Part shown: in pieces, positions 21,126-35,845 of the stretch | How the letters are laid out: the number at the start of each line of letters is the position of its first letter | Position numbering within the stretch: position 1 is the stretch's first letter | DNA from: Eubacterium sp. | GTDB taxonomy: Bacteria > Bacillota > Clostridia > Lachnospirales > Lachnospiraceae | DNA length: 64,000 bases | Direction of reading: 5' to 3' | NCBI GenBank assembly: GCA_017480495.1 | Contig: JAFVAQ010000036.1 | Span: 81,840 to 145,839 of the forward strand | Made by a program: the position numbers and the translations under genes | The notes under the pieces: model-generated | The model's input: only the letters and a program-made list of their open reading frames with translations | Database searches by the model: none | What the model was told of the DNA's origin: nothing

Positions 21126-21154
21126 GAATTATCTTATTTTTTGTGGAGGTAAAT

Positions 21155-22330
21155 ATGTTAGATCGTGGTTATTTAAAAAGCAGGGGTAATGCAGCCTACA
21201 AGAGAAATTACTGGCTGTGCGTTGTAGTTGCATTTATTCTTGCATGGGCAGCAGGAACTAGTGCCGGTTCCGGTGGTTCCAGCAGCTTTAGAAATTTTGG
21301 TAACAACTCTTCTTATAATAGTAGTTACGACAGTGACAGTTACTACGAAAGCTTCAATGATGACAATTTTGATCTGAATGAAATAATTGAGGATACTCAC
21401 GGGGATAATGGTTATAATACACGTGAGTTTAGACAGTTCCTTGCAATCTTCGGTGGAATTTTCCTAGTAGTATTTATAGTAGTATTAATATTCTCACTGG
21501 CGCTTAGTATATTTGTTAGGAATCCTTTAGCGGTCGGGTGTAAACGCTTCTTTGTGGTGAACTCCTTCGAAAATGCCAAATTTAATGAAGTTGGCTTCGG
21601 TTTCAAAAAGGGACAGTATATGAACATAGTTAAGGTTGAGTTCATGAAGAAGCTTTTCCTCTTCCTGTGGTTACTACCAGCTCTTGCTTCACTAATCCTT
21701 GGATTTGTACTAGCTTATACAACTGATACTATAGGACTACTCTTCCTATTTATGTTTATTTATTTAGGACTACTTTTCTTACCTATTTACAAGCAGTACG
21801 AATACTACATGGTAGACTATATCTTGTCAGAGGATCCAACTATCGGATATAAAGATGCAATTCAGCAAAGTAAAAATATGATGAATGGTTACAAATGGGC
21901 CACCTTCGTTTTAGAGCTTTCTTTCATAGGATGGATTATTCTTGGAGTCTTTACCTGTGGCTTACTAAATATCTTCATGGTTAGCCCATATATGAATGCA
22001 ACCTTTGCAGAGTTATTCCTGGAACTAAGATCAAAGCATTTTGGTCCAAATGTTCAGCCATATTATATACCAGCTACAGTAGGTGGATATGGCGGATATC
22101 CTCAGCAGGGTAATCCACAGCAGGGATATGGTCAGCAGCCAGCAGGTCAGCAGGGGTATGATAATCAGTACTACATGCCAAGCTATCCTTCTACACCATA
22201 TGATCCAAGAAATAATTATGATTCAAATGAATCTAATTCAAGTGAAACTAATTCATATAATTCTAACGAACCATATAATCCGGATCAGACGATTGGTGGT
22301 TCAGATAATAATGATCCTTACGGAATGTAA
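21155..22330 (+). CDS. DUF975 family membrane protein
   Basis: A 391-residue protein. The start is ATG 21155 (MLDRGYLKSRGNAAYKRNYW), with GGAGG 7 nt upstream; GTG 21143 is in frame but overlaps that site. The N-terminal KxxGxxxxKxNYW motif and helices at about 18-35, 105-135, 172-220 and 250-285 fit DUF975. An acidic Ser/Asn-rich loop follows the first helix. The tail (about 310-391) is disordered: GYGQQ/PQQG repeats, then SNESNSSETNS-type sequence. Function is unknown; these proteins occur widely in Firmicutes. A strong terminator follows. Confidence 0.85.
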   Translation: MLDRGYLKSRGNAAYKRNYWLCVVVAFILAWAAGTSAGSGGSSSFRNFGNNSSYNSSYDSDSYYESFNDDNFDLNEIIEDTHGDNGYNTREFRQFLAIFGGIFLVVFIVVLIFSLALSIFVRNPLAVGCKRFFVVNSFENAKFNEVGFGFKKGQYMNIVKVEFMKKLFLFLWLLPALASLILGFVLAYTTDTIGLLFLFMFIYLGLLFLPIYKQYEYYMVDYILSEDPTIGYKDAIQQSKNMMNGYKWATFVLELSFIGWIILGVFTCGLLNIFMVSPYMNATFAELFLELRSKHFGPNVQPYYIPATVGGYGGYPQQGNPQQGYGQQPAGQQGYDNQYYMPSYPSTPYDPRNNYDSNESNSSETNSYNSNEPYNPDQTIGGSDNNDPYGM

Positions 22331-22350: not shown

Positions 22351-22390
22351 AAATGGTTGTGAAACAAACGTTTCACAACCATTTTTTTTT
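22351..22390. terminator. Bidirectional terminator between DUF975 gene and upp
   Basis: A 15-bp perfect stem (22351-22365 with 22370-22384, core TGGTTGTGAAAC / GTTTCACAACCA) and a 4-nt loop. It is followed by a run of T on the plus strand and by T-rich sequence on the minus strand. It serves the two convergent genes. Confidence 0.92.
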
Positions 22391-22400
22391 ATAATCCATG

Positions 22401-23042
22401 TTATTTTGTACCGAATATTCTGTCTCCAGCATCTCCTAGTCCTGGGCAGATATATGCATCATCATTTAACTCTCTATCAACATTTCCGACATATATCTCT
22501 ATATCAGGATGTGCCTCAGCCAGCTTCTTTAATCCCTCAGGCGCTGCAATTATACAAAGGAACTTGATGTGGTTACCCCCACTCTTCTTTATATAATCAA
22601 CAGCAGCTATAGCTGAACCTCCTGTTGCCAGCATTGGATCAAGAACAGCAATGAGACGCTGATCTATTGGATCAGGAAGCTTACAATAATATTCATGAGG
22701 CTCATGAGTTTCTGGATCTCTATATAGTCCCACATGACCAACCTTAGCTGTAGGAACAAGAGCAGTTATACCATTTACCATTCCCAGTCCTGCTCTAAGT
22801 ATTGGTACAATAGCCAGCTTCTTGCCGTCTATCATAGGAGACATACACTTCTCTATAGGAGTTTCAACCTCAACATCCTTAAGAGGAAGATCACGGAATG
22901 CTTCGAAAGCCTCAAGCATTGCTATCTCTTCTACCAGTTTGCGAAATTCATTTGTACCCGTATCCTTATTTCTTAGAAGTGATATCTTGTGCTTAATAAG
23001 CGGATGAGTCATCACTTCAACATTAGCATAGTTCTCGTACAT
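22401..23042 (-). CDS. upp: Uracil phosphoribosyltransferase
   Basis: A 213-residue salvage enzyme making UMP from uracil and PRPP. It shows [17 protein letters not shown] at the N-terminus, [12 protein letters not shown], the PRPP loop [19 protein letters not shown], and the uracil-binding C-terminus [17 protein letters not shown]. Length and motifs are canonical. It lies 30 nt after the STAS gene with AGAGGTG before its start, so the two are probably one message from the promoter at 23405-23433. Confidence 0.96.
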
Positions 23043-23072: not shown

Positions 23073-23372
23073 CTACTGAATATTAATAATGTCTATAAAA
23101 CCAGTGATTTCAAATACTTCAAGAACATCATCTGAGGCATTCTTGATTGACATCTCTCCCTGTTTATTCATTATCTTCTGAGCTGAGAGCATTACTCTAA
23201 GTCCAGCACTTGATATATATTCAAGCTTCTCAAAATCAAAGACAAGATTCTTCACACCGTCCAGATTACTTTTAAGTTCAGCTTCAAAATCAGGAGATGT
23301 TGTTGTATCAAGACGTCCATCAAGACTTACAGTAAGTGTATCACCCTGTAGATCTTTATCAACATTTAACAT
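23073..23372 (-). CDS. STAS-domain anti-sigma-factor antagonist
   Basis: A 99-residue single STAS domain like SpoIIAA/RsbV. The phosphorylation site is in LEYISSAGLRVMLSAQK (Ser about 55). Such proteins are switched by an RsbW-type kinase and a PP2C phosphatase. Both partner activities sit in the fusion protein encoded 99 bp upstream (23472-25556). No sigma factor or separate anti-sigma gene is in view. A strong RBS (AAGGAGG) and a promoter precede it, so it can be expressed apart from the phosphatase. Confidence 0.88.
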   Translation of the reverse strand: MLNVDKDLQGDTLTVSLDGRLDTTTSPDFEAELKSNLDGVKNLVFDFEKLEYISSAGLRVMLSAQKIMNKQGEMSIKNASDDVLEVFEITGFIDIINIQ

Positions 23373-23404
23373 AATAATTCCTCCTTAATATGATACCAAT
23401 TTAT

Positions 23405-23433
23405 ATAATACAGCTTTTATCTCAAAATAACAA
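23405..23433 (-). promoter_or_regulatory. Sigma-A-type promoter of STAS gene and upp
   Basis: TTGTTA (23433-23428), 17-bp spacer, TATTAT (23410-23405) on the minus strand, 33 bp before the STAS start codon. Confidence 0.68.
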
Positions 23434-23471
23434 CTTATAATTACATTTAAAACTCTTTATTATATTATTCT

Positions 23472-25556
23472 TTAAAATTTCTTGACGATAGTAAGTATGT
23501 TCTTTCCATCCTCATATTCGTAGGTCATTTCATCCATACTCTTCTTAACCATGTATACTCCAAGACCACCTATCTGTCTCTCCTCTGAGGAAAGGGTTAC
23601 ATCTGGATCTGGTTTCTGAAGAGGATTATATGGTGTACCACTATCCTCAAATACAACTTTGATAGCATTAGGATCCTTGAAAAACTCAACTGTTATAGTT
23701 GCCATACCCTTCTTATCACCATATGCATAGTTTGCGATATTTACAAATATTTCCTCAACGGCTATATCCATAGCAATCTTAATGTTATTTCCACCATGGG
23801 CAGCTAGTCCATTCTCGATAAACTTAGTTACCCTGTCCATATTGTCGAGATCAGCTTCAATAGTTAATTCTCTCTTGTGCTCGCCTAGCTTCTTAGATAG
23901 ATTTGCTCCAAAATAACTGAAGCTCATCATAGTAGTATCATCAAACTGCTCTGCACCAGCAACAAATTCATTAATGCTATCTGTAACATTTTTCAGAATC
24001 TCAACAGGACTAGCGTTAGGATCCTTATTAAGAGCCTCCAGCAGTCTATCTGTACCATATAGCTCATTATTACTATTTGTTGATTCTGGAACACCATCTG
24101 TATATACAAATAAACTGTCTCCAGGATATATCTGGAATTCATGCTGCTTGAACTTTAGTCCTTCTAATGTTGCAACAGCCATTGAATGACGGTAGGTAAC
24201 TAGTTCGTACTGTCCTCCCTTTCTCCTTAGAACAGGATGCTCGTGTCCAGCATTTGCAGCGACACCCTTACCTGTTGAGATTTCAATTATTGCCATCCAA
24301 ACAGTTACGAATAGTTCTGCATCATTTCCTTCACACAGCTGATCATTTGCATAAGCCAGAACCTCTGAAGGAGAACCTCCCATCAGCGCTCTATTCTTGA
24401 TAAGAGTCTTCGCAATTACCATGAATAGTGCCGCCGGAACGCCCTTACCAGATACATCAGCCATTACCAAACCAATATGATCATCATCGATCATGAAGAA
24501 ATCATAGAAATCTCCACCAACTTCTTTTGCTGGATCCATAGAGGCATAGAGATCAAATTCTTTTCTTTCTGGAAAAGCTGGGAAGATTCTTGGGAGCATA
24601 TCTGCCTGAATCTGAGTAGCGACATTAAGCTCCGCACCTATTCTTTCCTTCTCAGCAGTAACCTTTTTGAGGTTATCCATGTAATCTATCAAACTATGCT
24701 GCATGTACTGAGTTGATTTATATAGATTCTCTATCTCATCGTCCGTCTTAATATCAAGTTCCTGAATCATATCCTTAGAATATGTTTCACTATCAGCAAA
24801 ATTCTCTGCCTCCTGAGTAAGAAGCTCTATTGGCTCTGCAACACCCTTATAAACAGATTTCATAACCATAAATGTAACAAGTATAACAGTTACAAATGCT
24901 GTAGCAGAAACAATAATAAGGAATATTCTGAACTGGTTATATATCTTAGTATTATCCATATCTACAAAGGCAATGGCCACAGCCTCACCGTTTGAGTTAT
25001 AGATTGCACCACCACCAGAACTTAGCCAGCCATAACCAGATAATGTGTTCGTAGGTTCAACGTCCTGATTACCCTTTAGATAATCAAAGCTACTTTCCAG
25101 CTCTTCAGTATGTCCTAGGCTATTATATCTATCAAAGGCCTCCATCAAGTCTATAGATTTACCATTATCAATTACACAAATATATACAAACTCTGTACCC
25201 ATGTTGGCGTTAAAGTCTTCCATGAATTCGATAGTTTCATCATACTCTTTTAGAAGACCCTTCTGATCCAGCCATTCCTTAACCTTATCCTGTTTTTTCT
25301 CTCCCTCCGGCATTTTACGAAGTTCATCAAAATCTTCGCCCTGCTGTGCCTTATACAGGCGCTCTATGAAGTCACCATCTATGCCGTCAGCTACGGTACT
25401 CGCAACTCTTGAAGTATGTTCATCAAATATCTTGGTATACTGAATATAGGTAGCTATAGCACTTCCTACAATCAGAAGAATTGCCAGCAGTGCCAGACCA
25501 GTATTTATCATTCTACCAAGCTTTTTGGTTAACTTAGAGACTTTCTTTTTCTTCAT
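23472..25556 (-). CDS. Membrane SpoIIE/RsbU-type phosphatase fused to RsbW-like ATPase
   Basis: A 694-residue signalling protein. An N-terminal helix (about 15-37) and a second near 210-235 flank an extracellular Cache-like sensor. A HAMP-like segment (240-300, EPIELLTQEAENF...) and a coiled coil lead to the PP2C domain (about 300-550: EVGGDFYDFF, VMADVSGKGVPAALFM, NAGHEHPVL, YTDGVPES). A HATPase_c_2 kinase domain follows (about 560-694: AVEEIFVNIANYAYGD, FEDSGTPYNP, GGLGVYMVKKSMDEM). Phosphatase and antagonist kinase in one chain imply that both switch the same STAS protein, probably the one at 23073-23372. Its start overlaps the preceding MFS gene by 23 nt, so translation is coupled. Confidence 0.9.
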   Translation of the reverse strand: MKKKKVSKLTKKLGRMINTGLALLAILLIVGSAIATYIQYTKIFDEHTSRVASTVADGIDGDFIERLYKAQQGEDFDELRKMPEGEKKQDKVKEWLDQKGLLKEYDETIEFMEDFNANMGTEFVYICVIDNGKSIDLMEAFDRYNSLGHTEELESSFDYLKGNQDVEPTNTLSGYGWLSSGGGAIYNSNGEAVAIAFVDMDNTKIYNQFRIFLIIVSATAFVTVILVTFMVMKSVYKGVAEPIELLTQEAENFADSETYSKDMIQELDIKTDDEIENLYKSTQYMQHSLIDYMDNLKKVTAEKERIGAELNVATQIQADMLPRIFPAFPERKEFDLYASMDPAKEVGGDFYDFFMIDDDHIGLVMADVSGKGVPAALFMVIAKTLIKNRALMGGSPSEVLAYANDQLCEGNDAELFVTVWMAIIEISTGKGVAANAGHEHPVLRRKGGQYELVTYRHSMAVATLEGLKFKQHEFQIYPGDSLFVYTDGVPESTNSNNELYGTDRLLEALNKDPNASPVEILKNVTDSINEFVAGAEQFDDTTMMSFSYFGANLSKKLGEHKRELTIEADLDNMDRVTKFIENGLAAHGGNNIKIAMDIAVEEIFVNIANYAYGDKKGMATITVEFFKDPNAIKVVFEDSGTPYNPLQKPDPDVTLSSEERQIGGLGVYMVKKSMDEMTYEYEDGKNILTIVKKF

Positions 25557-28527
25557 CCTTTACCACCCTTTTTATACTACGACGCTTTGATATACCTAAA
25601 CTAATAAGGAATATTAAACTAAAGGACATAAGCCCTGCAATCATAACAAAGAGTCCCTTACTAACGCCTGACATCAGAACAAGACCGAAAACAAATGAAC
25701 CTAGAGACTGAGCTCCATTTTCAAAGAGACTATATATTCCCATACTTCTATCATATCCATACTCCTCAACCTCATGGAGATCAGTATAATATGCAGATAA
25801 AAGTGGTATTCCAAAGCTATCAGCTATTCCTATTAATACAAGCGCAAGGAACAAGGTTTTAACATTATGATTAAGTGCTATATTAAGGAACGCCTCAGCA
25901 TAAAGTACCGCACTTAAGAATAGACCTAAGCCCTTAGCATTATGCTTAGAGAAGAGCGCTGTCAGCTTAGAACCAAGTATAACTGAGAGCACTCCAGTAA
26001 TTATATAGGAGTAACCAATATGTGTCTCTGAGATTCCCCATCTATCTCCAAGGATAGGATACATATAATAGAGATAATATCCACTTATAAGAAGTGGTGT
26101 CAGCATAAACAAGAAATAGGTTATTACTCTTGGCTTGAAGACAAAGCTAATAGGATTCATCTTCTTCTCACCAGCATCTTCACCTTCTTCTTCTACATAG
26201 TCCATCTTTGCAAGATATTTATTAGATACGTATATAAGTATAATACTTGAAAAGCCAGTTATGAGGAAGAGGAGCTTGTAGTTAACCCACTGAATGAGGA
26301 AACCACCCAGCACAACTCCGGCGTTACATCCTGTAAGAGATGCAATATTTTCCAAAGCGTAGCCTCTATCCTTTTCTTCTTCTGGAAGTGAGGCTATGAA
26401 AACATTTACAAGCAGGAGTTCTACTCCCCATCCCATTCCAAGAAGAATAGAACTTAGAGATAGCACCCAAATATTAGGAATAACTCTCAGAATAAGGCTT
26501 CCTGTGAAAACCATTGAGGACAGCATAACTGATTTTCTAACGCCAAGCTTTCTTATAATCTTACCGCCTATAGCTGAGAATATCGCTCCCGAGAATACCT
26601 CTGCACTGACTGGTATAGCAGCCATTATTTCAGGTGTGAAGAAAGCGAAATTGAATTCTTTAGAAATCTTAGTCGCATAAATAGGAAGTATTGCCGCAGT
26701 GAGATTCGTAAAGAAGAATACCAGGAATATAACATTTCTAAATATCTCTGATGGCAGCTCCTTAGGACTTCCGCCCGCTTCAACTTTTTCTCTATATTTC
26801 TGCTGGCCTTCCACATATGAAACAATTTCAAGTGCCACCATTATAATAACTACTGTCATGGCTATAACGTTAATGAGCAGCTTGAAGAGAAGCGCTCTAT
26901 TCTTCTCGTTGATCGTGGTCATATCAGTTCCGACTTCGACTATACCTATTGTATTACCTTGACCATCAGTAAGTGGTTTCTTGATATATAGGTAGTCACC
27001 CTGGCTAGTTGAACTCTGATATCTCTTAGTTCCGCCCCCATCAATGATATCTTGGTAGTCATCAATAGTTTCTCCAGTTGGATAACATGCATATATATCC
27101 TCAAGAGTATATACAATAACGACCTCTCCGTTTGGTCTGAAGTTATATATCTCACAATATAGATCTTCACCCTCTTTTGTGAAGAATACATCCCTCGCAG
27201 ACTTTCTAATGAGCTTATAGTCCTCCCCCATGAAATCAGAGACCTTGCTGATATTTTCTACCGACTCAGAAGGAAGCTTAGCTATTGTAATTGAGGCCGC
27301 AAGTTCTTCCTTACGGTATAGCTCATCCATATATTGTTCTTGAAAACTTGGGAAAAGACTTCCGAGGAATAAAGCACCAAGAATAACAACACCAATAATT
27401 ATTCCGACTATAAGTCTTATAGACTGATTCTGCTGAGTAAATACAAAGTGAAGTCCCTTTGCAAGCAAAATTATAAATGTCGTAACTACAAACAAACCTG
27501 CCAAATTATATAAAAAGCCTTCTATGAATAAACGATTTCCGTACTTAGCAGAATCTACAAATTCACAGTTATCGCCATCCCATAGACTTATTCCACTCTC
27601 AGAAACGGAACAGATACCACCCATATCTGCATTTACAATAGCGTCCATTTCTCTTTCTTCAATATCCTCTGAAGATCTAAGATATGACTTATATCCAGTA
27701 TTGATTTCGTGCTTGATTATCATTCTTCTACCAATATCAGCTATGTAGAGAAAACCATTTTCGTAGCATATATTCTGTGGCACACTTCCATCTTCCATAT
27801 CAGATGTAAAGATAAGCTCATCGTTCTCACCATCGATATATTTATAAACCTGACCTGAATAGGTGTCATAGAACAGAGTTCCCGTCTCCTGATCAAGAGC
27901 AGTATAGAGGATATTTTCATCAGAGTTCTCTATCCTGTAGAGACTATTTCTCTCATTACCATTCTTGTAAACTCCAACACCTGAGGGTTCATTTATCATA
28001 TATAGAATTCCGTCCTCAGTTGGCTCAAATCCTACCACATGCTGGCGCATAGTACTGTGAGGATTGTCCTTCGTATATATTTCCTCAAGTTGCTCACCAT
28101 CTTCAGATATCTTTACTATTTTTTCTTTATTTATACGAATTCCATTATCGTATTCTATCTCGTAGATATAGATACCTCCATCTCCGCCAACAGTTACCTT
28201 GCTGACGCCTTCAAAGCCCACATCCGCTCCATCCAGTATCCATTCTATCTCCCCGTCACTAAGAACCTTATATATTGAATCTCCAGAATCCGCTACAACT
28301 ATCAGATCTCCATTCTCTAGACGTGACGCATCAACAACATCCTCGAACAGGACTTCCTTAAATGGATTCACCAAAAACCATGACTGTAAGTAGTAAAGGA
28401 GAATGCAACTAACAACAAAAACAACTCCCCACAGTATTTTTAATACTCTTCGGGGAGTTAATAGCTTGCTATTTATCTCCTTGATACTCTTAAAATCATT
28501 AATGTTTTTTATCCTTTTGCTGCCCAT
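25534..28527 (-). CDS. Beta-propeller / Cache / MFS fusion membrane protein
   Basis: A 997-residue protein of unusual build. One helix at about 31-52; an extracellular beta-propeller-like region at 55-330 with repeated GDLIVVADSGDSIYKV and GILYMINE-type blades; two helices at about 340-395; a second extracellular region at 400-545 resembling a Cache domain (GDYLYIKKPLTDGQGNTIGIVEVG); a helix at 550-575; then a twelve-helix MFS domain (600-985) with IIRKLGVRKSVM as the loop-2/3 motif. A sensor-coupled transporter or transporter-like receptor is plausible, but no substrate can be inferred. It lies 10 nt after the DUF2156 gene and overlaps the phosphatase gene by 23 nt. Confidence 0.8.
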   Translation of the reverse strand: MGSKRIKNINDFKSIKEINSKLLTPRRVLKILWGVVFVVSCILLYYLQSWFLVNPFKEVLFEDVVDASRLENGDLIVVADSGDSIYKVLSDGEIEWILDGADVGFEGVSKVTVGGDGGIYIYEIEYDNGIRINKEKIVKISEDGEQLEEIYTKDNPHSTMRQHVVGFEPTEDGILYMINEPSGVGVYKNGNERNSLYRIENSDENILYTALDQETGTLFYDTYSGQVYKYIDGENDELIFTSDMEDGSVPQNICYENGFLYIADIGRRMIIKHEINTGYKSYLRSSEDIEEREMDAIVNADMGGICSVSESGISLWDGDNCEFVDSAKYGNRLFIEGFLYNLAGLFVVTTFIILLAKGLHFVFTQQNQSIRLIVGIIIGVVILGALFLGSLFPSFQEQYMDELYRKEELAASITIAKLPSESVENISKVSDFMGEDYKLIRKSARDVFFTKEGEDLYCEIYNFRPNGEVVIVYTLEDIYACYPTGETIDDYQDIIDGGGTKRYQSSTSQGDYLYIKKPLTDGQGNTIGIVEVGTDMTTINEKNRALLFKLLINVIAMTVVIIMVALEIVSYVEGQQKYREKVEAGGSPKELPSEIFRNVIFLVFFFTNLTAAILPIYATKISKEFNFAFFTPEIMAAIPVSAEVFSGAIFSAIGGKIIRKLGVRKSVMLSSMVFTGSLILRVIPNIWVLSLSSILLGMGWGVELLLVNVFIASLPEEEKDRGYALENIASLTGCNAGVVLGGFLIQWVNYKLLFLITGFSSIILIYVSNKYLAKMDYVEEEGEDAGEKKMNPISFVFKPRVITYFLFMLTPLLISGYYLYYMYPILGDRWGISETHIGYSYIITGVLSVILGSKLTALFSKHNAKGLGLFLSAVLYAEAFLNIALNHNVKTLFLALVLIGIADSFGIPLLSAYYTDLHEVEEYGYDRSMGIYSLFENGAQSLGSFVFGLVLMSGVSKGLFVMIAGLMSFSLIFLISLGISKRRSIKRVVKDEEKESL

Positions 28528-28537
28528 AGCTAACCTC

Positions 28538-29491
28538 TTAAACTTCTAGAATTAGTTTTGACTCTAAGGAATAATGTGGAGCCATATGTTCCTTATATCT
28601 TCTCAGACTCTCTACGCCCATATCCTCAGTATAATTTATCTCTGTCACATCTGACATATATCTATCAAAGCTTTCTCTAAGTAAAAATTCATTTAAGCCC
28701 TTAATATGATTGTTCGCATTCTTATACTGATAAACACCGAGGCCATTTCTAACGCTTACTATAGAAAGGCCAACTGCCTTTCCATCAACTCTTACGAGTA
28801 TACCCTCAACATTAAGAGTATCTATATTTTTCACGATTATATCAATAACATTCTTGAGGCATCCATAGTGACACATATTGCAGTCAGTAAACTCGCACCA
28901 TAGATTCTCCATCATTTCTTCGCATTCGTCTGCTAGCTCAGGAGTCAGTTCAACTACCTCATATTCATTTCGGCGCATGAAATATCTATATCTATATCTG
29001 TCATCCTGCGAATCCATTCCAGCCTCGAAATCTTCTGGTGTGAAGACATAATCCATCTCTTCTCTATTATCAGTTACCTTGAAATGGATTCCTGTAGCTT
29101 CGTAGTATGGAAGCATCCATCTAGAGACGTCATAGATCATCAGCTCCGCTCCAAAGAATTCAAAATCCTCCTCCAGAACCTTCATCGCGTCTATTATCTC
29201 TTCCTCAGTATAATGACCTATAAAAGGTATCGCAGATATATATCCTTCAGTACTATCATAATTAACTGCTATAATCAGATCTTCGAATATCTTGTAGTAG
29301 GTCGGAAAGGTATCATGCCATGCATATAGATTCACAAAACATGTAGAGGAACTCCAATGGTTATTCATCTCGTCATAATACTTATCAAAAACCTTTTGAT
29401 CCTCAGGAGTTACCTTTTTGTAGCCTCTTTCAATTATTTTATTTAATAAATCTTCAGGTATTCTAGAATACTGCTTGCTATCTACCTTCAT
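28538..29491 (-). CDS. DUF2156 protein (GNAT-fold, MprF synthase-like)
   Basis: A 317-residue soluble protein. The opening WSSSTCFVNLYAWHDTFPTYYKIFEDLIIAVNYD (shown in part: CFVNLYAWHDTF) and the C-terminal VDGKAVGLSIVS / INYTEDMGVESLRRYKEHMAPHYS match DUF2156, the fold of the phosphatidylglycerol lysyltransferase half of MprF. Members use aminoacyl-tRNA to modify lipids or peptides, though many have no proven substrate. Its ATG overlaps the stop of the alpha-galactosidase gene (ATGA), and the propeller-MFS gene starts 10 nt later. In MprF the synthase domain is fused to a lipid flippase, so the neighbouring MFS protein may be a functional counterpart; this is inference. Confidence 0.82.
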   Translation of the reverse strand: MKVDSKQYSRIPEDLLNKIIERGYKKVTPEDQKVFDKYYDEMNNHWSSSTCFVNLYAWHDTFPTYYKIFEDLIIAVNYDSTEGYISAIPFIGHYTEEEIIDAMKVLEEDFEFFGAELMIYDVSRWMLPYYEATGIHFKVTDNREEMDYVFTPEDFEAGMDSQDDRYRYRYFMRRNEYEVVELTPELADECEEMMENLWCEFTDCNMCHYGCLKNVIDIIVKNIDTLNVEGILVRVDGKAVGLSIVSVRNGLGVYQYKNANNHIKGLNEFLLRESFDRYMSDVTEINYTEDMGVESLRRYKEHMAPHYSLESKLILEV

Positions 29492-31869
29492 GATATATCT
29501 ACTGCCTCCATATAATAAACTCTTGCGGCAAAGTCCGCAAAAACACGTGTTTTATCATTAAAGCCTGTACCTGCATAAGCCGGAAGTAGTTTAACACCAG
29601 CTCCCATTATAGCACTTCCGAACATATTTAGGCTATCATAATCTCCTCCGAGCTTATATACCTTAGATAGTATGTCCTGCGTTACTGAACCAGGCTTTAT
29701 ATGTACAGGTGAAACTGTGTTCACCAAATCACCAAATTCTTTGATATTTACCTTTATCTCTCTATTATAGAAATGATAATACTTGTCACGGTCGAGTCCA
29801 CGTGGTCTGAAATATTCATAGGACATATTTGGATTCGCAAGTCTCTGAACTATGAGACCTACAGCCTTCTCCTTATCTGGGGAAACCACCGTCCATTCAG
29901 TGACATTTTCATTTCCATATGAATTCCTAAAGGTTCTTCCTCTATACATTTGACCATATTGGAATACCTTGCGGAATTTCTTATATACCTCAACCTGTCT
30001 CTTAACTTCCGCCAGATCGTCCCTACTCATATCACATAAGTTACATTCATAACCCATGCTACCAAAGGCCGCAACTCCGAACCTTGTCTCAAGAGGAGTT
30101 ATTCTAAGCGTCTGATGATTAGGAACTCCGGACACATGAGCGCTCCAGCAGCTCTGAGGATATCCGTAGCTATATCCACTCTGAATATCTGTACGCATTA
30201 TAGCGTCAGTATCATCGCTTCCCCATATCTGAGGGAAGTAGCTGAGAATTCCGAGGTCGAATCTATTACCCCCTGCAGCACATCCTTCAAAGAGGATATG
30301 TGGAAATCTCTCTGTGAGAACCTTCATACATATATATAGGCCAATGATATATCTATGAGTAAGCTCTCCTTGATAATTATATGTATCCGAAAGCCCTGCC
30401 AGATAGCTTGAATAAATATCTGTCAGAGTTCGGTTCATATCCCATTTTACATATTCTATATTTGCAGAGGAGAACACCTTGGACATAGCCTCTATGATGT
30501 AGTCCTGAACTGCTGGATTTGCAAGATCAAGTATTCTCTGATTACGTCCCTCGCTGTGCTCCTTCAGGGGATTCTGAATAGCCCAATCCGGATGCTCTCT
30601 ATATAGATTGGAATTAACACTTACCATCTCTGGCTCAACCCAAAGACCAAAGGATAATCCCAGCTTATTAATCTTATCCGCTAATCCTTTAAGTCCTCCT
30701 GGCAGCTTCTTCTTGTTAGGGTACCAGTCTCCAAGCGAAGATGTGTCATCATTTCTCTCGCCAAACCAGCCATCATCCATAACAAAGAGTTCTATTCCAA
30801 CCTCCTTAGCTGCCTTTGCAAGTTTAAGAAGCTTTCTCTCATTTATATCAAAGTAAGCCGCCTCCCAACTATTAAGAAGAACAGGACGTTCCTTCTTACT
30901 CCATTCACCTCTCGTAACATGTTCTCGAATAAAGCGGTGGAAATTCGTGCTCAGTCCATTAAAACCAGCAAAGGAAAATGTCATTATAGCCTCTGGAGTT
31001 TCGAACTCCTCTCCACTCTCCAGACGCCACTTAAATCCCCTAGGATTTATTCCCCACAGGACTCTGGTCTTATCAAATTCATTTACCTCTACTATCTCCG
31101 CGTGATTACCGCTGTATATAAGATTAAATCCAAAGGCTATTCCATAGTCTTCTGTAGTTGTCTCCCTTGAAAGCATGAATAACGGATTGGCATTACTGGA
31201 AGAAGTACCTGTATAGCTTGAATTGATATGCTTACCGGCCTTTATAGTCACATCCTTACGCCCCATCTCCCTGGCCCACGCTCCGTTAAAGGTTGACATA
31301 ACATAATCGTCGCCATTGATTCCCAGCTGAGCAGACATTAGCTGATGTATAAATACAGCCTTCTTGCCATAATTAACAAGACGTGCTGTTCTAGTTATTA
31401 CATTTTCTTCCTCATAGACATAATAATCCAGGAAGAGCCTCAGTTCATTTGCTTTATCAATGAGGGATATCTGCAGGTGACTACGCTCTCCCTTTAGTCC
31501 ATAGGAGGAAGGCATAGTACTTAGCTCCTCCTTTATATCATCAATCTCAGAGGCCTCAAACAGAAAATCTGAGGTTCTGCTCCCATCAGAATTCTCAACC
31601 ACCGCAAAGGCCTCTCGATTGTCCCCTCTTCCTTCAAAGGATGCCTCCAAAAGAAGATTGTTCAGTGTTAGTTGAGGAAACTCTGCACTATATGCATTAT
31701 TATTTCCTGGAATAAATTCCTGGCGTTCTATAAGACCATCCAGACTATCTACAACACGGATACGTGATCCGTAGTATAAATGCTCCAGATGTCCACTCTT
31801 TGTAATTCTAAAAATATATGAAGTATTATCTGTATTTAATACGAAATAACTCTTTCCATCTATTATCAT
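29488..31869 (-). CDS. GH36 alpha-galactosidase
   Basis: A 793-residue cytosolic enzyme (no signal peptide) that removes alpha-1,6-galactose from melibiose and raffinose oligosaccharides. The N-terminal beta-sandwich covers about 1-320. The catalytic barrel has ELFVMDDGWFGERNDD, the nucleophile in YVKWDMNR, FEGCAAGGNRFD, and the acid/base Asp in WGSDDTDA. The Cys-Gly substrate loop and length fit clostridial GH36. It lies 39 nt after the GPH symporter (RBS AAGGAC) and is coupled to the DUF2156 gene by a 4-nt overlap. Confidence 0.95.
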   Translation of the reverse strand: MIIDGKSYFVLNTDNTSYIFRITKSGHLEHLYYGSRIRVVDSLDGLIERQEFIPGNNNAYSAEFPQLTLNNLLLEASFEGRGDNREAFAVVENSDGSRTSDFLFEASEIDDIKEELSTMPSSYGLKGERSHLQISLIDKANELRLFLDYYVYEEENVITRTARLVNYGKKAVFIHQLMSAQLGINGDDYVMSTFNGAWAREMGRKDVTIKAGKHINSSYTGTSSSNANPLFMLSRETTTEDYGIAFGFNLIYSGNHAEIVEVNEFDKTRVLWGINPRGFKWRLESGEEFETPEAIMTFSFAGFNGLSTNFHRFIREHVTRGEWSKKERPVLLNSWEAAYFDINERKLLKLAKAAKEVGIELFVMDDGWFGERNDDTSSLGDWYPNKKKLPGGLKGLADKINKLGLSFGLWVEPEMVSVNSNLYREHPDWAIQNPLKEHSEGRNQRILDLANPAVQDYIIEAMSKVFSSANIEYVKWDMNRTLTDIYSSYLAGLSDTYNYQGELTHRYIIGLYICMKVLTERFPHILFEGCAAGGNRFDLGILSYFPQIWGSDDTDAIMRTDIQSGYSYGYPQSCWSAHVSGVPNHQTLRITPLETRFGVAAFGSMGYECNLCDMSRDDLAEVKRQVEVYKKFRKVFQYGQMYRGRTFRNSYGNENVTEWTVVSPDKEKAVGLIVQRLANPNMSYEYFRPRGLDRDKYYHFYNREIKVNIKEFGDLVNTVSPVHIKPGSVTQDILSKVYKLGGDYDSLNMFGSAIMGAGVKLLPAYAGTGFNDKTRVFADFAARVYYMEAVDIS

Positions 31870-31908: not shown

Positions 31909-33360
31909 CTATTCACTTACTTCATTTAACGCTGCAGAACTGGCATCGCGTACTTTCAGTTCTTCTGTAATCTCCTTCATCTTGTCTTCCGTTAAGATGA
32001 ACTTTTTCTTAAATACTATTATGGCTATAAAAAGACCTATGATTGGAATAATCGTCATAGTCATTCTAAGTCCCAGCTTAGCGGCTGCTGATACATCTGC
32101 AGAGAAATCATGAAGCAGATCCGCTGCTCCTTCAGTATCATCACTCAGATTATTAACCTGCAGACATATTGAGGCAACAAGCGCTGCAATACCGGATGCA
32201 AGCTTAACTACAAAGGTCTGCATAGAGAAGATAACCGATTCATCTCTTCTACTATTTTTGAGATCCCCGTAGTCTACTGTATTCGCCAAGAATACTGTTG
32301 TCAGTACCTGAAGTACTCCATTCGCAGCAAAGATAAAGAAGCCTGGGATAAAGAGTATGAATACATTTGACATATTTATAAATGCTATTGCAAGAAGAAC
32401 TCCGTATCCTATTATTGCACTAGCAAGACAGATATAGAATACTTTGATATTGCTAGCGAACTTACGAAGGACTGGATAGAAAATCATCATTGAAAGTATC
32501 TGAATAGCACCACCAAACATGTTGAAATATGTGAAGCTGCCCTTCCAGCCCGCTCCACCAAAATCATATTTGAAGAAATATATAACAAGGTTTGATGTGA
32601 TATATATCGATGTATTGATAAGTACAATTGCAAGAACTATTGTCATCGCCTGATCATTTGTGATAAGAGCCTTGAACATCTGTCCTACAGATGGTGACTC
32701 CATATCAACCGTTGCCTGCTCTTTTATATTCACACAGGTGATAATGATGAATACGATAAAGAGAATAGCTATGATAAGTGCAAACCACTTAAAGCCGGCT
32801 ATTTCAACAGCTTTTGCAGAAGCATTTGAACCTGCTATAAGCTTTCCAATCTTGCTAACAATTGCAACTGTGAAGATAGTAACTAATGCTGAACCTACAC
32901 CTGCACAGGAACGAGCGAGAGTTGTCAGATTCTCTCTATCCTTACCCGAATCAGTAAAAGCAGGTATCATTGACCAATAAGGAATATCCATCATTGTATA
33001 GGTTACTCCCCATAGAATATAAGTAACTGCTGCATAGGCTACAAGTCCCTTGCCATCTAAACTAGGTGGGCAGGCAAACATCAGAAACAGTATAATGGCA
33101 TTTGTTATAGTTCCAATCATCAGCCAAGGTCTGAACTTACCCCATTTAGTCTTGGTCTTCGCAACAATAACTCCCATGATAGGATCATTAAATGCATCGA
33201 ATACTCTTGCTGCCATAAGAATGATACCCATTGCTATAGCATTTACTCCAAGAACATTTTGAAAATAGTAAAGCACATAACTTGCTGAGAGCATGTAAAC
33301 CATGTCTTTACCTACAGCTCCCAGTCCATAAGAAATCTTTTCTGTTAATCCTAGCTTCAT
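31909..33360 (-). CDS. GPH-family galactoside:cation symporter
   Basis: A 483-residue twelve-helix permease of the glycoside-pentoside-hexuronide family (MelB-like). N-terminal KISYGLGAVGKDMVYMLSASYVLYYF, the cation-site region VFDAFNDPIMG, and KTKWGKFRPWLMIG are family hallmarks. Between GH2 and GH36 genes it probably imports galactosides driven by Na+ or H+. RBS AGGAGAAGG precedes the start; the gap to GH2 is 31 nt. Confidence 0.95.
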   Translation of the reverse strand: MKLGLTEKISYGLGAVGKDMVYMLSASYVLYYFQNVLGVNAIAMGIILMAARVFDAFNDPIMGVIVAKTKTKWGKFRPWLMIGTITNAIILFLMFACPPSLDGKGLVAYAAVTYILWGVTYTMMDIPYWSMIPAFTDSGKDRENLTTLARSCAGVGSALVTIFTVAIVSKIGKLIAGSNASAKAVEIAGFKWFALIIAILFIVFIIITCVNIKEQATVDMESPSVGQMFKALITNDQAMTIVLAIVLINTSIYITSNLVIYFFKYDFGGAGWKGSFTYFNMFGGAIQILSMMIFYPVLRKFASNIKVFYICLASAIIGYGVLLAIAFINMSNVFILFIPGFFIFAANGVLQVLTTVFLANTVDYGDLKNSRRDESVIFSMQTFVVKLASGIAALVASICLQVNNLSDDTEGAADLLHDFSADVSAAAKLGLRMTMTIIPIIGLFIAIIVFKKKFILTEDKMKEITEELKVRDASSAALNEVSE

Positions 33361-33391: not shown

Positions 33392-35845
33392 CTACTTAAT
33401 TATAAAATCTACAGTTGTTGTTTCCCCATTTTGTGTTGTTATACTAAGCTTTGCTGTTCCTGTCTTGCCAGTGGTCTTAATATATGTACCACCCATACCA
33501 CCCTGGAGAGATATAACTGATGGACCAATCAGTTCAATAGGTCCTTCAACAGTAAAGCTTAATGGATCATTTGAAAATGGAAGTACATTTCCATATTCAT
33601 CCCTATCCTCTATTCTTATAGCTGCAACATCATAGGAACTCTCTTCCTTTAGTTCAGTATGATCGACATCTATAAATAGTTTTCTCTTTGTCATAGGAGC
33701 AAGTGTTACAGTCTTAACAACCTCACCGTCCTTAATAGCTTCAAATCGGTAGGTAGTAGACTCACTTCCCCAATCTCCTACATATTTATTGAAATAAGCA
33801 ACTGCGTCAGTCATGCTCATTCTGTATTTAACACTTACAAATCCAGCCTTAGCCATCATCTTTTTAGACATGCCATAGAGACCAACTCTTGCAACTTCAT
33901 TCAAGAGTACCTTCAGGTCCTCTGCCTGCTTCTCAGACATACCTGGTTCACCCTCTAGAATGGCATCTCCTATATAATCATCTACCTTGATAGGTCCATG
34001 ACTTAGATTCTTCCATTCACTATCTGCAGTGAAATACTCCTTTATAAATCTATCATTCTTGTACATCTTCACGCTGTCAGCATTTGTGAGAATATAAACA
34101 TCGCCTCTGTTGCTTCCAGGATGCTCGCCGATATCCATCGAGGAGCTAACCTTAAGTACAGGAGTATCCTCCTGCTGAATGCTATAAACTGCTGCAGCCA
34201 GCTTAGGATTACGGAACATATCCATAACTCCGTGATAGCATATACGGTCTCCACTTCCGAAGTCCTTATGAGTATTATAATCAAACATACACCAGCCAAA
34301 AGAACCTGCTATATCTGTCTGATTAGCAACCTCATCTATAACATTTGCATGCCTAAGCATATGCTCCATTCTGTGTTCTTCCCAATCGAAGGCCTTAGTA
34401 GGATACATATGTCCATTGTATTCACTTACAAGATATGGCTTGTCGACATTCGAAGTAACATCTGATTTCTTCTCTACGCCCTTGTTGCCACCGGTATGAG
34501 AGAAATCATTGTAGGTATAAACATCCTCCAGCATGCTACCCTTCTTGTAGCAACGAACTCCACCTGTCTGACGGGATGGATCAAGCTCTCTGCAAAGCTC
34601 ATTAGTTCTGGTGTAGAAATCATCATCGTCTACGGACTCATTTATTCTTACGCCCCAGAGAATAATGGATGGATGATTCCTATACTGTGTAACCATCTCG
34701 CGTACATTCTCTACCGCCTGATCCTTCCAGTCTGCATCACCTATATGCTGCCAGCCTGGGAATTCAGTAAATACAAGAAGCCCCAGCTCGTCGCATTTAT
34801 CTATAAAATACTGACTCTGAGGATAATGTGAAGTACGAACTGCATTTAGTCCCAGCTCATATTTGAGTATATTTGCATCCCGCTCCTGCATAGATTTCGG
34901 CATCGCATATCCAACATAAGGATAGCTTTGATGACGGTTTAGTCCACGAATCTTAACCTTACGTCCGTTGAGGAAGAAACCACTCACCTTGAACTGTGCC
35001 CTGCGGAATCCTATTTTAACTTCTTTTTCATCAAGGACCTTGTCCTTAGTATTCTTTCTGTTTGGATCAGCCTTCTTGATAAGCTCGGTCTTAACCTCGT
35101 ATCTGACAGGATTCTCGATATCCCACAGTTCTACCTCTCCTGTCATGGCTGGAATATCTGAGAGGACATTTCCCTCTCCTTCTATATTCTGGCAGATAAG
35201 CTCCTGGTATTCTGTCTCGCCACACCTTCTGATAGACTGTCTAATTGCTAGCCCCTCGCTCATTTCATTTAGCTCTATCCTCGAAAGTATCTGAGAGGCT
35301 CCAACCTTCCTGATACCATCTTCTTCAAACTTATCTGCAAGCTTTGTGGTAATAAAAATGTCTTTGATATAGTTCTTCTCTTTGACATCTATATAGACAT
35401 CTCTATATATGCCACCATAAGTCATATAATCTATAACAAAACCAAATGGAGGAATATTTAAACTCTCTCTGCTATCACATTTAACTGCGATAACATTATC
35501 CTCGCCTATTTTAAGTGCTGCAGAGATATCTGCAGTAAATGCTGTATATCCTGTGTGATGCTCTGCAACCCTGACACTGTTAACGTATACAGTTGCATCA
35601 TGAGCAACTCCTTCAAAGGTCAGAAGTATCTTCTTACCCTCCCACTTCTTAGGAGCCTTCAGAATTCTTCTATAACCACTAACCATCTGGTAATCCTTCT
35701 CATCACAATAATGATAAGGTAATTCCTTTACAGTATGTGGTATACGTACATCCTTCATAGATGAATCTGTATAATCTCTACCTAGAATATCCTCACTGAA
35801 ATTCTCGCTGAATTTCCAGTCGTTATTTAAGTATATCCTCTCCAT
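33392..35845 (-). CDS. GH2 beta-galactosidase-like glycosidase
   Basis: An 817-residue cytosolic GH2 enzyme. The jelly-roll N-domain (about 1-190: LNNDWKF, FEGVAHDATVYVN), an immunoglobulin-like domain, then the barrel (about 300-600: IRGLNRHQSYPYVGYAMP, NAVRTSHYPQS). The acid/base is the Glu of WGVRINES and the nucleophile the Glu of YLVSEYNGH. A C-terminal extension after 650 carries an Ig-like sandwich, as in many gut GH2s. Beta-galactosidase is the likeliest activity given GPH and GH36 neighbours; GH2 also includes mannosidases and glucuronidases. RBS AAGGAGGG; 20 nt after the TetR gene. Confidence 0.9.
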   Translation of the reverse strand: MERIYLNNDWKFSENFSEDILGRDYTDSSMKDVRIPHTVKELPYHYCDEKDYQMVSGYRRILKAPKKWEGKKILLTFEGVAHDATVYVNSVRVAEHHTGYTAFTADISAALKIGEDNVIAVKCDSRESLNIPPFGFVIDYMTYGGIYRDVYIDVKEKNYIKDIFITTKLADKFEEDGIRKVGASQILSRIELNEMSEGLAIRQSIRRCGETEYQELICQNIEGEGNVLSDIPAMTGEVELWDIENPVRYEVKTELIKKADPNRKNTKDKVLDEKEVKIGFRRAQFKVSGFFLNGRKVKIRGLNRHQSYPYVGYAMPKSMQERDANILKYELGLNAVRTSHYPQSQYFIDKCDELGLLVFTEFPGWQHIGDADWKDQAVENVREMVTQYRNHPSIILWGVRINESVDDDDFYTRTNELCRELDPSRQTGGVRCYKKGSMLEDVYTYNDFSHTGGNKGVEKKSDVTSNVDKPYLVSEYNGHMYPTKAFDWEEHRMEHMLRHANVIDEVANQTDIAGSFGWCMFDYNTHKDFGSGDRICYHGVMDMFRNPKLAAAVYSIQQEDTPVLKVSSSMDIGEHPGSNRGDVYILTNADSVKMYKNDRFIKEYFTADSEWKNLSHGPIKVDDYIGDAILEGEPGMSEKQAEDLKVLLNEVARVGLYGMSKKMMAKAGFVSVKYRMSMTDAVAYFNKYVGDWGSESTTYRFEAIKDGEVVKTVTLAPMTKRKLFIDVDHTELKEESSYDVAAIRIEDRDEYGNVLPFSNDPLSFTVEGPIELIGPSVISLQGGMGGTYIKTTGKTGTAKLSITTQNGETTTVDFIIK

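What the first reader, a model, noticed from the sequence alone, without database searches (positions are those of the whole stretch)
23073..29491. Candidate new sensing system: propeller-Cache-MFS protein, DUF2156 enzyme, phosphatase-kinase fusion, STAS
Four tightly packed genes. DUF2156 to propeller-MFS gap 10 nt; propeller-MFS to phosphatase overlap 23 nt. The 997-residue protein joins two extracellular sensor regions to a full MFS domain. The 694-residue protein joins Cache-like sensor, PP2C and RsbW-like kinase, so one chain can both phosphorylate and dephosphorylate the STAS switch. DUF2156 is the fold of the MprF lipid aminoacyl synthase, whose flippase partner is usually fused; the MFS could take that role. 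Together they suggest envelope or nutrient sensing linked to lipid modification through partner switching, with no sigma factor in view.
Basis: partly seen in the sequence, partly recalled or inferred. Interest (0 to 1): 0.82.

Follow-up and report, generated by a model that had tools for sequence, protein, structure and literature searches.

The report
Sensor-transporter wired to phosphatase switch
In this Lachnospiraceae bacterium, four packed genes encode a membrane protein that looks like a receptor and a transporter in one, a small enzyme of an amino-acid-transferring family and a phosphatase/kinase/switch-protein relay; relatives of the set recur in related bacteria, at times beside injection machines or bacteriocin exporters, which hints at a chemical signalling system not yet described.

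Summary
In detail: coordinates, 10-nt gap and 23-nt overlap are exact. The 997-aa protein has a family-supported NHL-type beta-propeller, a Cache-like region (weak) and a NorA-type MFS domain; the 694-aa protein is SpoIIE-type phosphatase plus RsbW-type kinase; STAS keeps its switch serine. It is not a one-off: 20 of 250 sampled family genomes, own included, carry such a sensor-MFS (14 full length). In 11 of 15 other carriers examined a SpoIIE-type gene lies within 8 kb (0.24 expected). The exact four-gene set was not seen elsewhere; the fusion was seen only in this species, and STAS was near in 6 of 58 loci. Relatives sit by contractile-injection (6/58) or NHLM-type export genes (9/58). DUF2156 lies near propeller-bearing forms only (12/28 versus 0/30). 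Other loci carry ATP-grasp, formyltransferase, GH3 or NRPS enzymes. The MprF lipid idea is weakly supported. Best reading: a receptor-transporter, paired with a synthase of an amino-acid conjugate, feeding a partner switch; conjugate and output are inferred. Ten literature searches listed no description.

The parts
28538..29491 (-). free-standing DUF2156/LPG_synthase_C enzyme (317 aa), predicted aminoacyl-tRNA-dependent transferase of GNAT fold
   Evidence: Pfam PF09924 6.5e-19; only copy found in the 65.6% complete genome; profile matches PDB 2hqy 8.4e-36; aminoacyl transfer is inferred from the family
25534..28527 (-). propeller-Cache-MFS receptor-transporter (997 aa)
   Evidence: ORF; full-length relatives; TM map
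27508..28380 (-). extracellular NHL-type beta-propeller, residues 50-340
   Evidence: family profile A8 vs PDB: Pizza7H 3.6e-22, PknD 5.4e-11
26803..27345 (-). extracellular Cache-like region with its TM, residues 395-575
   Evidence: family profile A7 vs PDB: DcuS 7.1e-4, CitA 2.6e-3 to 3.8e-3; dCache_1 0.013 in the single protein
25573..26760 (-). MFS domain, residues 590-985, closest in the PDB to drug exporter NorA
   Evidence: MFS_1 1.5e-26; A1 profile vs NorA 1.3e-13 over positions 594-983
23472..25556 (-). phosphatase-kinase fusion (694 aa)
   Evidence: separate genes in relatives other than L003
24657..25556 (-). N-terminal sensor with TM stretches (residues 12-41 and 207-236) around an extracellular region
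   Evidence: hydropathy; no domain named by Pfam
23922..24488 (-). SpoIIE-type PP2C phosphatase domain, residues 357-545
   Evidence: PF07228 1.3e-44; metal-ligand motifs 97-100% conserved in 30 aligned sequences
23481..23861 (-). RsbW-type GHKL kinase domain, residues 566-692
   Evidence: PF13581 4.6e-20; N, G1 and G2 box residues invariant in 14 aligned sequences
23073..23372 (-). STAS switch protein (99 aa), Ser55 the expected phospho-site
   Evidence: PF01740 1.9e-16; Ser55 invariant in 7 of 7 aligned
29488..31869 (-). context: GH36 alpha-galactosidase, overlaps DUF2156 by 4 nt
   Evidence: Pfam Melibiase 2.2e-145; same order in L003
31909..35845 (-). context: GPH sugar:cation symporter (31909-33360) and GH2 enzyme (33392-35845), same strand
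22401..23042 (-). context: uracil phosphoribosyltransferase gene starting 30 nt after STAS; terminator-like hairpin at 22351-22384

Best explanation
The four genes are one member of a conserved signalling cassette of Bacillota. SHOWN by sequence and neighbourhood: a membrane protein with an NHL propeller, a Cache-like region and a complete exporter-like MFS domain is kept near a SpoIIE-type phosphatase, an RsbW-type kinase and at times a STAS protein, and near an enzyme that transfers or ligates an amino-acid-like group. INFERRED: the enzyme (here DUF2156, taking an aminoacyl group from tRNA) makes a small conjugate; the MFS domain moves it across the membrane; the propeller/Cache ectodomain reads it or a related ligand outside; the phosphatase-kinase protein shifts the phosphorylation of STAS Ser55, and STAS then frees or binds its target. 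In relatives the linked hardware may be a contractile injection system or an NHLM-type bacteriocin exporter; in the window species the target is unknown.
For: Recurrence (own genome included): 20 of 250 family genomes, 14 full length; 32 of 392 in the order; 5 of 245 in the class; 8 of 249 in the phylum. Within 8 kb of the MFS gene: phosphatase in 32 of 58 loci, kinase 14, STAS 6. In 11 of 15 non-own genomes examined, of 19 such carriers, a SpoIIE-type gene is within 8 kb although 14 of the 15 hold 1-3 such genes and one 11; expected 0.24, at most 5 in a million simulations. Catalytic motifs kept. DUF2156 within 8 kb in 12 of 28 loci with a propeller detected and 0 of 30 without (p=3.4e-5; 10 of 24 versus 0 of 28 after dropping four near-duplicates and two truncated MFS genes, p=1.2e-4), so enzyme type follows ectodomain type. 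A second family (fam3, unknown) takes its place in 8 of 28, 0 of 30. In the first 34 usable loci 20 have DUF2156, D-Ala-D-Ala-ligase-type ATP-grasp, formyltransferase, GH3 or NRPS genes in the tight MFS operon. None of these families was among the 14 found in two or more of 92 control genes. Genomes with sensor-MFS carry CIS13- or NHLM-type hits in 14 of 20 versus 34 of 230 (p=2.6e-7). MFS closest to exporter NorA. GNAT-fold tRNA-dependent enzymes make small natural products (PMC12945691, passages).
Against: No ligand, product or output is shown. 12 of 28 propeller-bearing loci have no phosphatase within 8 kb (some are cut by contig ends) and STAS was near in 6 of 58. The own genome (65.6% complete) has neither CIS13 nor NHLM_ABC2 at the thresholds used. 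Those thresholds were lax: no CIS13 hit passed the family's cut-off (most cover only about its first 140 positions), and 13 of the 29 NHLM genomes did. GNAT neighbours, 4 of 34 loci, are not above background (6 of 92 control genes). The enzyme classes were grouped after seeing the first set: in the second set of 13 loci 6 had one of them (5 formyltransferases, probably one lineage, and one DUF2156), 2 had other amino-acid enzymes (alanine racemase; a saccharopine-dehydrogenase-like gene), 4 none and 1 was cut; in the third set 3 of 9 genomes had one (DUF2156; no Pfam scan made). Loci are related to each other, so p-values are too small. Structures could not be predicted.
Confidence: 0.4

Rival explanations
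1. Nutrient sensing: the MFS protein is an uptake or binding sensor for a sugar, amino acid or carboxylate, and the partner switch tunes the galactoside-utilisation operon in which the set lies.
For: GH2-GPH-GH36 lie upstream on the same strand and GH36 overlaps DUF2156 by 4 nt; the Cache region resembles citrate/C4-dicarboxylate sensors; substrate-binding proteins of the Bmp or ABC_sub_bind kind sit beside many relatives; a GH43 gene was among the control genes, which come from the same stretches, and a GH2-like gene lies about 4 kb from the MFS gene in L112.
Against: Of 65 stretches searched only L003, the same species, has relatives of GH36 and GPH; the operon already has its own GPH symporter; the MFS domain is closest to drug exporters.
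Confidence: 0.2
2. Natural-product cassette: the enzyme makes an antibiotic-like conjugate, the MFS protein exports it and gives self-protection, and the switch only times production.
For: NRPS-type genes in L073, L079, L080, NHLM-type export genes in 9 of 58 loci, NorA-like MFS, GNAT-fold tRNA-dependent transferases in antibiotic pathways.
Against: Does not by itself explain why a propeller and Cache are fused to the exporter; many of the operons hold a single recognised enzyme of this sort.
Confidence: 0.2
3. One reading: DUF2156 aminoacylates membrane lipids and the MFS acts as flippase, MprF-like, under envelope-stress control.
For: Pfam family LPG_synthase_C; DUF2156 and propeller-MFS stay adjacent in other families (L070, L071, L101, L103, L110, L111).
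Against: No TM stretch in DUF2156; profile finds PDB 2hqy only, no MprF structure at E<=10; in other loci unrelated enzymes sit where DUF2156 sits here.
Confidence: 0.12
4. The neighbourhood is loose: DUF2156 and the MFS work together, while phosphatase, kinase and STAS are an independent switch that merely shares an operon.
For: In L021, L022, L070, L071, L101 and L111 DUF2156 and MFS occur with no PP2C within 8 kb of the stretch seen.
Against: 11 of 15 co-location against 0.24 expected; compact sets L078, L087, L100.
Confidence: 0.08

Closest known systems
Rsb/SpoIIA partner-switching systems (RsbU-RsbW-RsbV, SpoIIE-SpoIIAB-SpoIIAA)
   Same: PP2C phosphatase, GHKL kinase and STAS with the conserved serine; mechanism as described in PMC8256260 (passages)
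   Different: phosphatase and kinase fused here; a receptor-transporter and an enzyme ride along; no SigB/F/G-family hit over the curated cut-off in the 65.6% complete genome
Rv1364c (PDB 3ke6), a multi-domain phosphatase protein
   Same: one of five PDB matches of the 694-aa protein (3.7e-5); that it also carries kinase and STAS domains is recalled
   Different: the match covers residues 338-492 only; membrane sensor here, STAS separate
SiaA biofilm phosphatase (NF038263)
   Same: residues 195-547 matched, 51.6 bits
   Different: far below the cut-off of 700 bits; kinase fused here; SiaC/SiaD context not tested
MprF lysyl-phosphatidylglycerol synthase
   Same: Pfam family of the catalytic domain
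   Different: free-standing, no TM, no match to MprF structures
DUF2156 protein of PDB 2hqy
   Same: nearly full-length profile match 8.4e-36
   Different: named only a conserved hypothetical protein
VlmA/DhpH/PacB-type tRNA-dependent GNAT-fold transferases
   Same: predicted aminoacyl transfer from tRNA to a small acceptor (PMC12945691, passages)
   Different: those are FemABX-like; similarity to the window DUF2156 was not tested

Membership tests
Partner-switching system | SpoIIE/PP2C phosphatase with metal-binding motifs | tested here: met
   PF07228 1.3e-44; motifs 97-100% conserved in 30 sequences, window and L003 included
Partner-switching system | GHKL serine kinase of RsbW/SpoIIAB type | tested here: met
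   PF13581 4.6e-20; E, N, DxG, GGxG invariant in 14 sequences
Partner-switching system | STAS protein with phosphorylatable serine | tested here: met
   Ser55 in 7 of 7
Partner-switching system | cognate sigma factor or other target | tested here: inconclusive
   best SigBFG hit 135 bits against cut-off 234, 426-aa frame, plus one weak hit; genome 65.6% complete; not all targets are sigma factors
Partner-switching system | phosphotransfer and reversal | not testable with these tools
   needs biochemistry
MprF | LPG_synthase_C domain | tested here: met
   PF09924 68.5 bits, cut-off 27.5
MprF | fused N-terminal flippase membrane domain | tested here: not met
   no TM stretch in 317 aa
MprF | profile similarity to solved MprF synthase domains | tested here: not met
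   only 2hqy at E<=10
Exporter-type MFS (DHA1, NorA-like) | MFS domain with best similarity to drug exporters | tested here: met
   among MFS structures NorA ranks first, 1.3e-13 over positions 594-983
Exporter-type MFS (DHA1, NorA-like) | antiporter motif C (GP..GG in helix 5; motif recalled) | tested here: inconclusive
   window reads TGCNAGVVLGG: glycines kept, proline absent
NHL beta-propeller | profile match to NHL propeller structures | tested here: met
   Pizza7H 3.6e-22, PknD 5.4e-11
Cache sensor (CitA/DcuS type) | profile match to Cache structures | tested here: inconclusive
   DcuS 7.1e-4 over 33 of 184 positions, CitA 2.6e-3 over 55
Autoinducer (quorum-sensing) system | dedicated synthase beside its receptor | tested here: inconclusive
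   enzyme type tracks ectodomain type; product unknown
Autoinducer (quorum-sensing) system | density-dependent self-produced signal | not testable with these tools
   needs culture work

The most novel reading that the evidence does not exclude
A new class of bacterial chemical signalling: one conserved receptor-transporter scaffold (propeller and/or Cache fused to an exporter-like MFS) is paired, lineage by lineage, with different small-molecule-conjugating synthases (DUF2156, ATP-grasp, formyltransferase, GH3, NRPS, fam3), and the exported conjugate is sensed by the same protein, which through a PP2C/kinase/STAS switch, or by another route where no switch is present, controls contractile injection or bacteriocin export.
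Probability: 0.27. Interest if true: 0.92.

Novelty: new variant of a known kind. Interest (0 to 1): 0.66.

Why it matters
If right, it shows how Lachnospiraceae and their kin may decide when to deploy injection machines and bacteriocins, and it names a synthase-receptor pair that can be tested by metabolomics. It would also put a receptor and a drug-exporter-like transporter in one chain upstream of a partner switch, an arrangement for which I saw no description in the searches listed.

Tried and rejected
GNAT neighbours as part of the enzyme pattern: rejected as evidence, since 6 of 92 control genes were GNATs. fam3 as a divergent DUF2156: rejected, profile comparison probability 0.2 percent; fam3 also has no PDB match and one member no Pfam match. 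A window-specific oddity: rejected. Fused kinase as part of the conserved design: rejected, the fusion was seen only in the window species (and the later tables). Viral contigs as a source of relatives: three scans, none found. Promoter-like sites are near the shuffle mean (49 against 46.5), so no promoter is claimed. Literature: ten searches, of which some were aimed at the enzymes and not at the cassette; nothing describing the cassette was seen in the listings. Papers: passages of PMC12945691, PMC8256260 and PMC4822843 were seen; the others only as search listings. Pfam PF09924 missed the DUF2156 relatives of G180 and G463 at E<=0.001; the one in L019 rests on similarity to the window protein, that in L071 on my own profile and clustering, and L111 was found only by my own profile. 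Control set: the script chose 100 of 148 eligible genes; I passed on 92 and left out 8, most of them cut by the end of a stretch. Some control genes belong to sensor-MFS operons (for example the formyltransferase of L100 and fam3 of L027), which works against my claim.

Full report
1. What is in the window. The window comes from a Lachnospiraceae genome: two named Lachnospiraceae MAG contigs encode the 997-aa protein at 97-98% identity, and one of them (L003) repeats the order GH2, GPH symporter, GH36, DUF2156, MFS protein, phosphatase-kinase; it ends just after the last, so STAS cannot be seen there. GH36 and DUF2156 overlap by 4 nt, and upp starts 30 nt after STAS, followed by a terminator-like hairpin at 22351-22384, so the transcription unit may be longer than four genes.

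2. Domains. Pfam names STAS, SpoIIE, HATPase_c_2, MFS_1 and LPG_synthase_C above their cut-offs. Hydropathy gives TM stretches at 25-54, 333-365, 366-396 and 543-575 ahead of the MFS helices, which would place the propeller and the Cache region outside. With a 28-sequence profile the propeller matches NHL propellers (3.6e-22); the Cache region reaches DcuS and CitA sensors at E 7e-4 to 4e-3 over part of its length, which is weak. Among MFS structures NorA ranks first. In 30 aligned phosphatases, 14 kinases and 7 STAS proteins (window included) the catalytic and switch residues are kept at 97-100%.

3. Is it conserved? With the 997-aa protein alone 15 of 250 family genomes matched; with a 15-sequence profile 20 of 250, of which 14 are full length; 32 of 392 in the order; 5 of 245 in the class; 8 of 249 in the phylum. 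The own genome is counted in each. The tool scores at most two or three candidates a genome in these searches, so these are lower bounds. I fetched stretches around the hits and called genes with my own profiles. In 58 loci (several cut by contig ends; some near-duplicates; L003 stands for the window) PP2C lies within 8 kb in 32, kinase in 14, STAS in 6, DUF2156 in 12, fam3 in 8, CIS genes in 6, NHLM-type genes in 9, and PP2C, CIS or NHLM in 43; so 15 of 58 show none of the three. I counted SpoIIE-type genes in 16 of the 20 carriers: 15 hold 1-3, one 11. In 11 of the 15 that are not the own genome one copy lies within 8 kb; 0.24 is expected and a million simulations never exceeded 5. The four without are G029, G112, G196 and G240. 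Compact examples: MFS-STAS-kinase-phosphatase in L078; STAS-formyltransferase-binding protein-MFS-phosphatase-kinase in L087; STAS-kinase-formyltransferase-phosphatase-peptidase-binding protein-MFS in L100.

4. The partner enzyme. DUF2156 adjoins the MFS gene in L019-L022 and lies two genes away in L023; in other families it adjoins it in L070, L071, L101, L103, L110 and L111. It is within 8 kb of 12 of 28 MFS genes with a propeller detected and 0 of 30 without (p=3.4e-5); two of the 30 (L065, L104) start at a contig end and may have lost theirs. Without these and without four near-duplicates the count is 10 of 24 against 0 of 28 (p=1.2e-4). An undescribed family (fam3) is near in 8 of 28 and 0 of 30; the two were never in one locus. 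Forms without a detected propeller instead have D-Ala-D-Ala-ligase-type ATP-grasp (L032, L075, L076, L086), formyltransferase (L077, under the Pfam cut-off, L087 and the second set), GH3 (L085, L089) or NRPS (L079); exceptions with a propeller are L031 (formyltransferase) and L073/L080 (free-standing condensation and adenylation genes) (L075, L076 and L080 by similarity to the scanned ones). In all, 20 of 34 usable first-set loci have one of these classes, 8 have fam3, 4 (L025, L029, L030, L088) only a GNAT or GNAT-like gene, and 2 (L063, L078) none; a 35th, L065, starts at a contig end and was dropped, and L068 was under the score threshold. Control: of 92 genes four or more genes away, 6 were GNATs, so I discount GNATs; none of the other classes was among the 14 families with two or more members, but 101 of 126 families are not shown, so single members cannot be excluded. 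The control counts single genes, the test looks at several neighbours per locus, and the classes were grouped after seeing the first set. Second set, 13 loci: formyltransferase in five (L092, L095, L096, L097, L100, probably one lineage), DUF2156 in L101, alanine racemase in L091, a gene like the saccharopine-dehydrogenase-like one of L068 in L102, none seen in four (L090, L093, L094, L099), one cut (L098). Third set, 9 genomes: DUF2156 in 3, an alanine-racemase relative in L105, no Pfam scan of the rest; PP2C, NHLM or CIS beside the MFS in 8 by reading the gene tables, where L104 counts by hits that miss the threshold; L105 had none of the three.

5. Linked machines. Sensor-MFS genomes carry CIS13 or NHLM_ABC2 hits in 14 of 20 against 34 of 230 others (p=2.6e-7); full-length forms 9 of 14 against 39 of 236 (p=1.7e-4). 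Caveats: two weak CIS13 hits (G079, G128) were left out; no CIS13 hit passed the curated cut-off and most cover only about the first 140 of 392 positions; I set the NHLM threshold at 1e-150, and 13 of the 29 genomes pass the curated cut-off. That the linked loci are contractile systems is backed by Baseplate_J and Tail_P2_I in L025, Baseplate_J in L063 and a phage sheath in L083. Physical links: the MFS gene directly precedes CIS13 in L023; DUF2156-MFS follows a CIS cluster in L081/L021; STAS, kinase, MFS and phosphatase lie between tail genes and effector-like genes in L025; NHLM-type ABC1-ABC2 directly precede the MFS gene or its DUF2156 in L022, L027, L070, L071, L076 and L101 (the L027 ABC2 scores 690.5 against a cut-off of 709.4). 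In G180 and G208 the CIS13 hit is far away or on another contig. The same kind of ectodomain is also found on HAMP-cyclase proteins in L063 and L064, and a relative lies in the CIS cluster of L107. The own genome shows neither machine at these thresholds, but it is 65.6% complete.

6. Reading. The flow receptor to phosphatase to STAS is supported as a design and untested as chemistry. That the enzyme makes what the MFS moves and the ectodomain senses is my inference; it rests on enzyme type following ectodomain type, on the exporter-like MFS and on precedent for GNAT-fold tRNA-dependent enzymes making small compounds (PMC12945691, passages). The MprF lipid reading fails two of its own marks. 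Relatives of the GH36 and GPH genes were found in only one of 65 stretches, L003, so the galactoside link looks specific to this species.

7. Novelty. Partner switching is a known kind; the receptor-transporter plus exchangeable enzyme in front of it was not seen described in the listings of ten searches of the held library. In the Cache-domain census PMC4822843 a search of the main text found no MFS, major facilitator or transporter. I rate it a new variant of a known kind, with a real chance of more.

Noticed in passing
L028:6414-7805, L024:10793-12118, L026:6541-7950, L067:6884-8023 and others: fam3, an undescribed 300-470 aa protein family with motifs GGPCLFG and PDxSY, in most cases directly upstream of the propeller-MFS gene (four genes away in L027); no PDB match for the profile, no Pfam match for the one member scanned to 0.05.
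   Followed up: partly
L063:5238-7997, L064:7191-9938, L107:15933-18659: The propeller-Cache ectodomain also sits on other cytoplasmic parts: HAMP plus class III cyclase by Pfam in L063 and L064; a relative inside the L107 contractile-injection cluster.
   Followed up: partly
L094:8477-10546 and L099:6135-8210: Beside two short sensor-MFS genes lies a chemoreceptor-like protein; in L094 Pfam shows an Ion_trans channel domain fused to HAMP and MCPsignal; the one in L099 begins alike and was not scanned.
   Followed up: no
L070:11028-11684, L071:10959-11609, L101:320-979: A Leu/Phe-tRNA-protein transferase gene directly follows the propeller-MFS gene in NHLM-type loci (Pfam in L070, similarity in the others), a second tRNA-dependent transferase in the same operon.
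   Followed up: no
L085:16620-18293: A GH3-family enzyme, a family best known from plant hormone conjugation (recalled), overlaps a sensor-MFS gene by 1 nt.
   Followed up: no
L030:4577-5683, L031:6037-7122, L075:9380-10567, L087:4787-6001 and others: Substrate-binding proteins (Bmp or ABC_sub_bind) recur beside sensor-MFS genes.
   Followed up: partly
window 21143-22330: DUF975 membrane protein with Ser/Asn/Gln-rich stretches, on the opposite strand and ending at the shared terminator-like hairpin.
   Followed up: no
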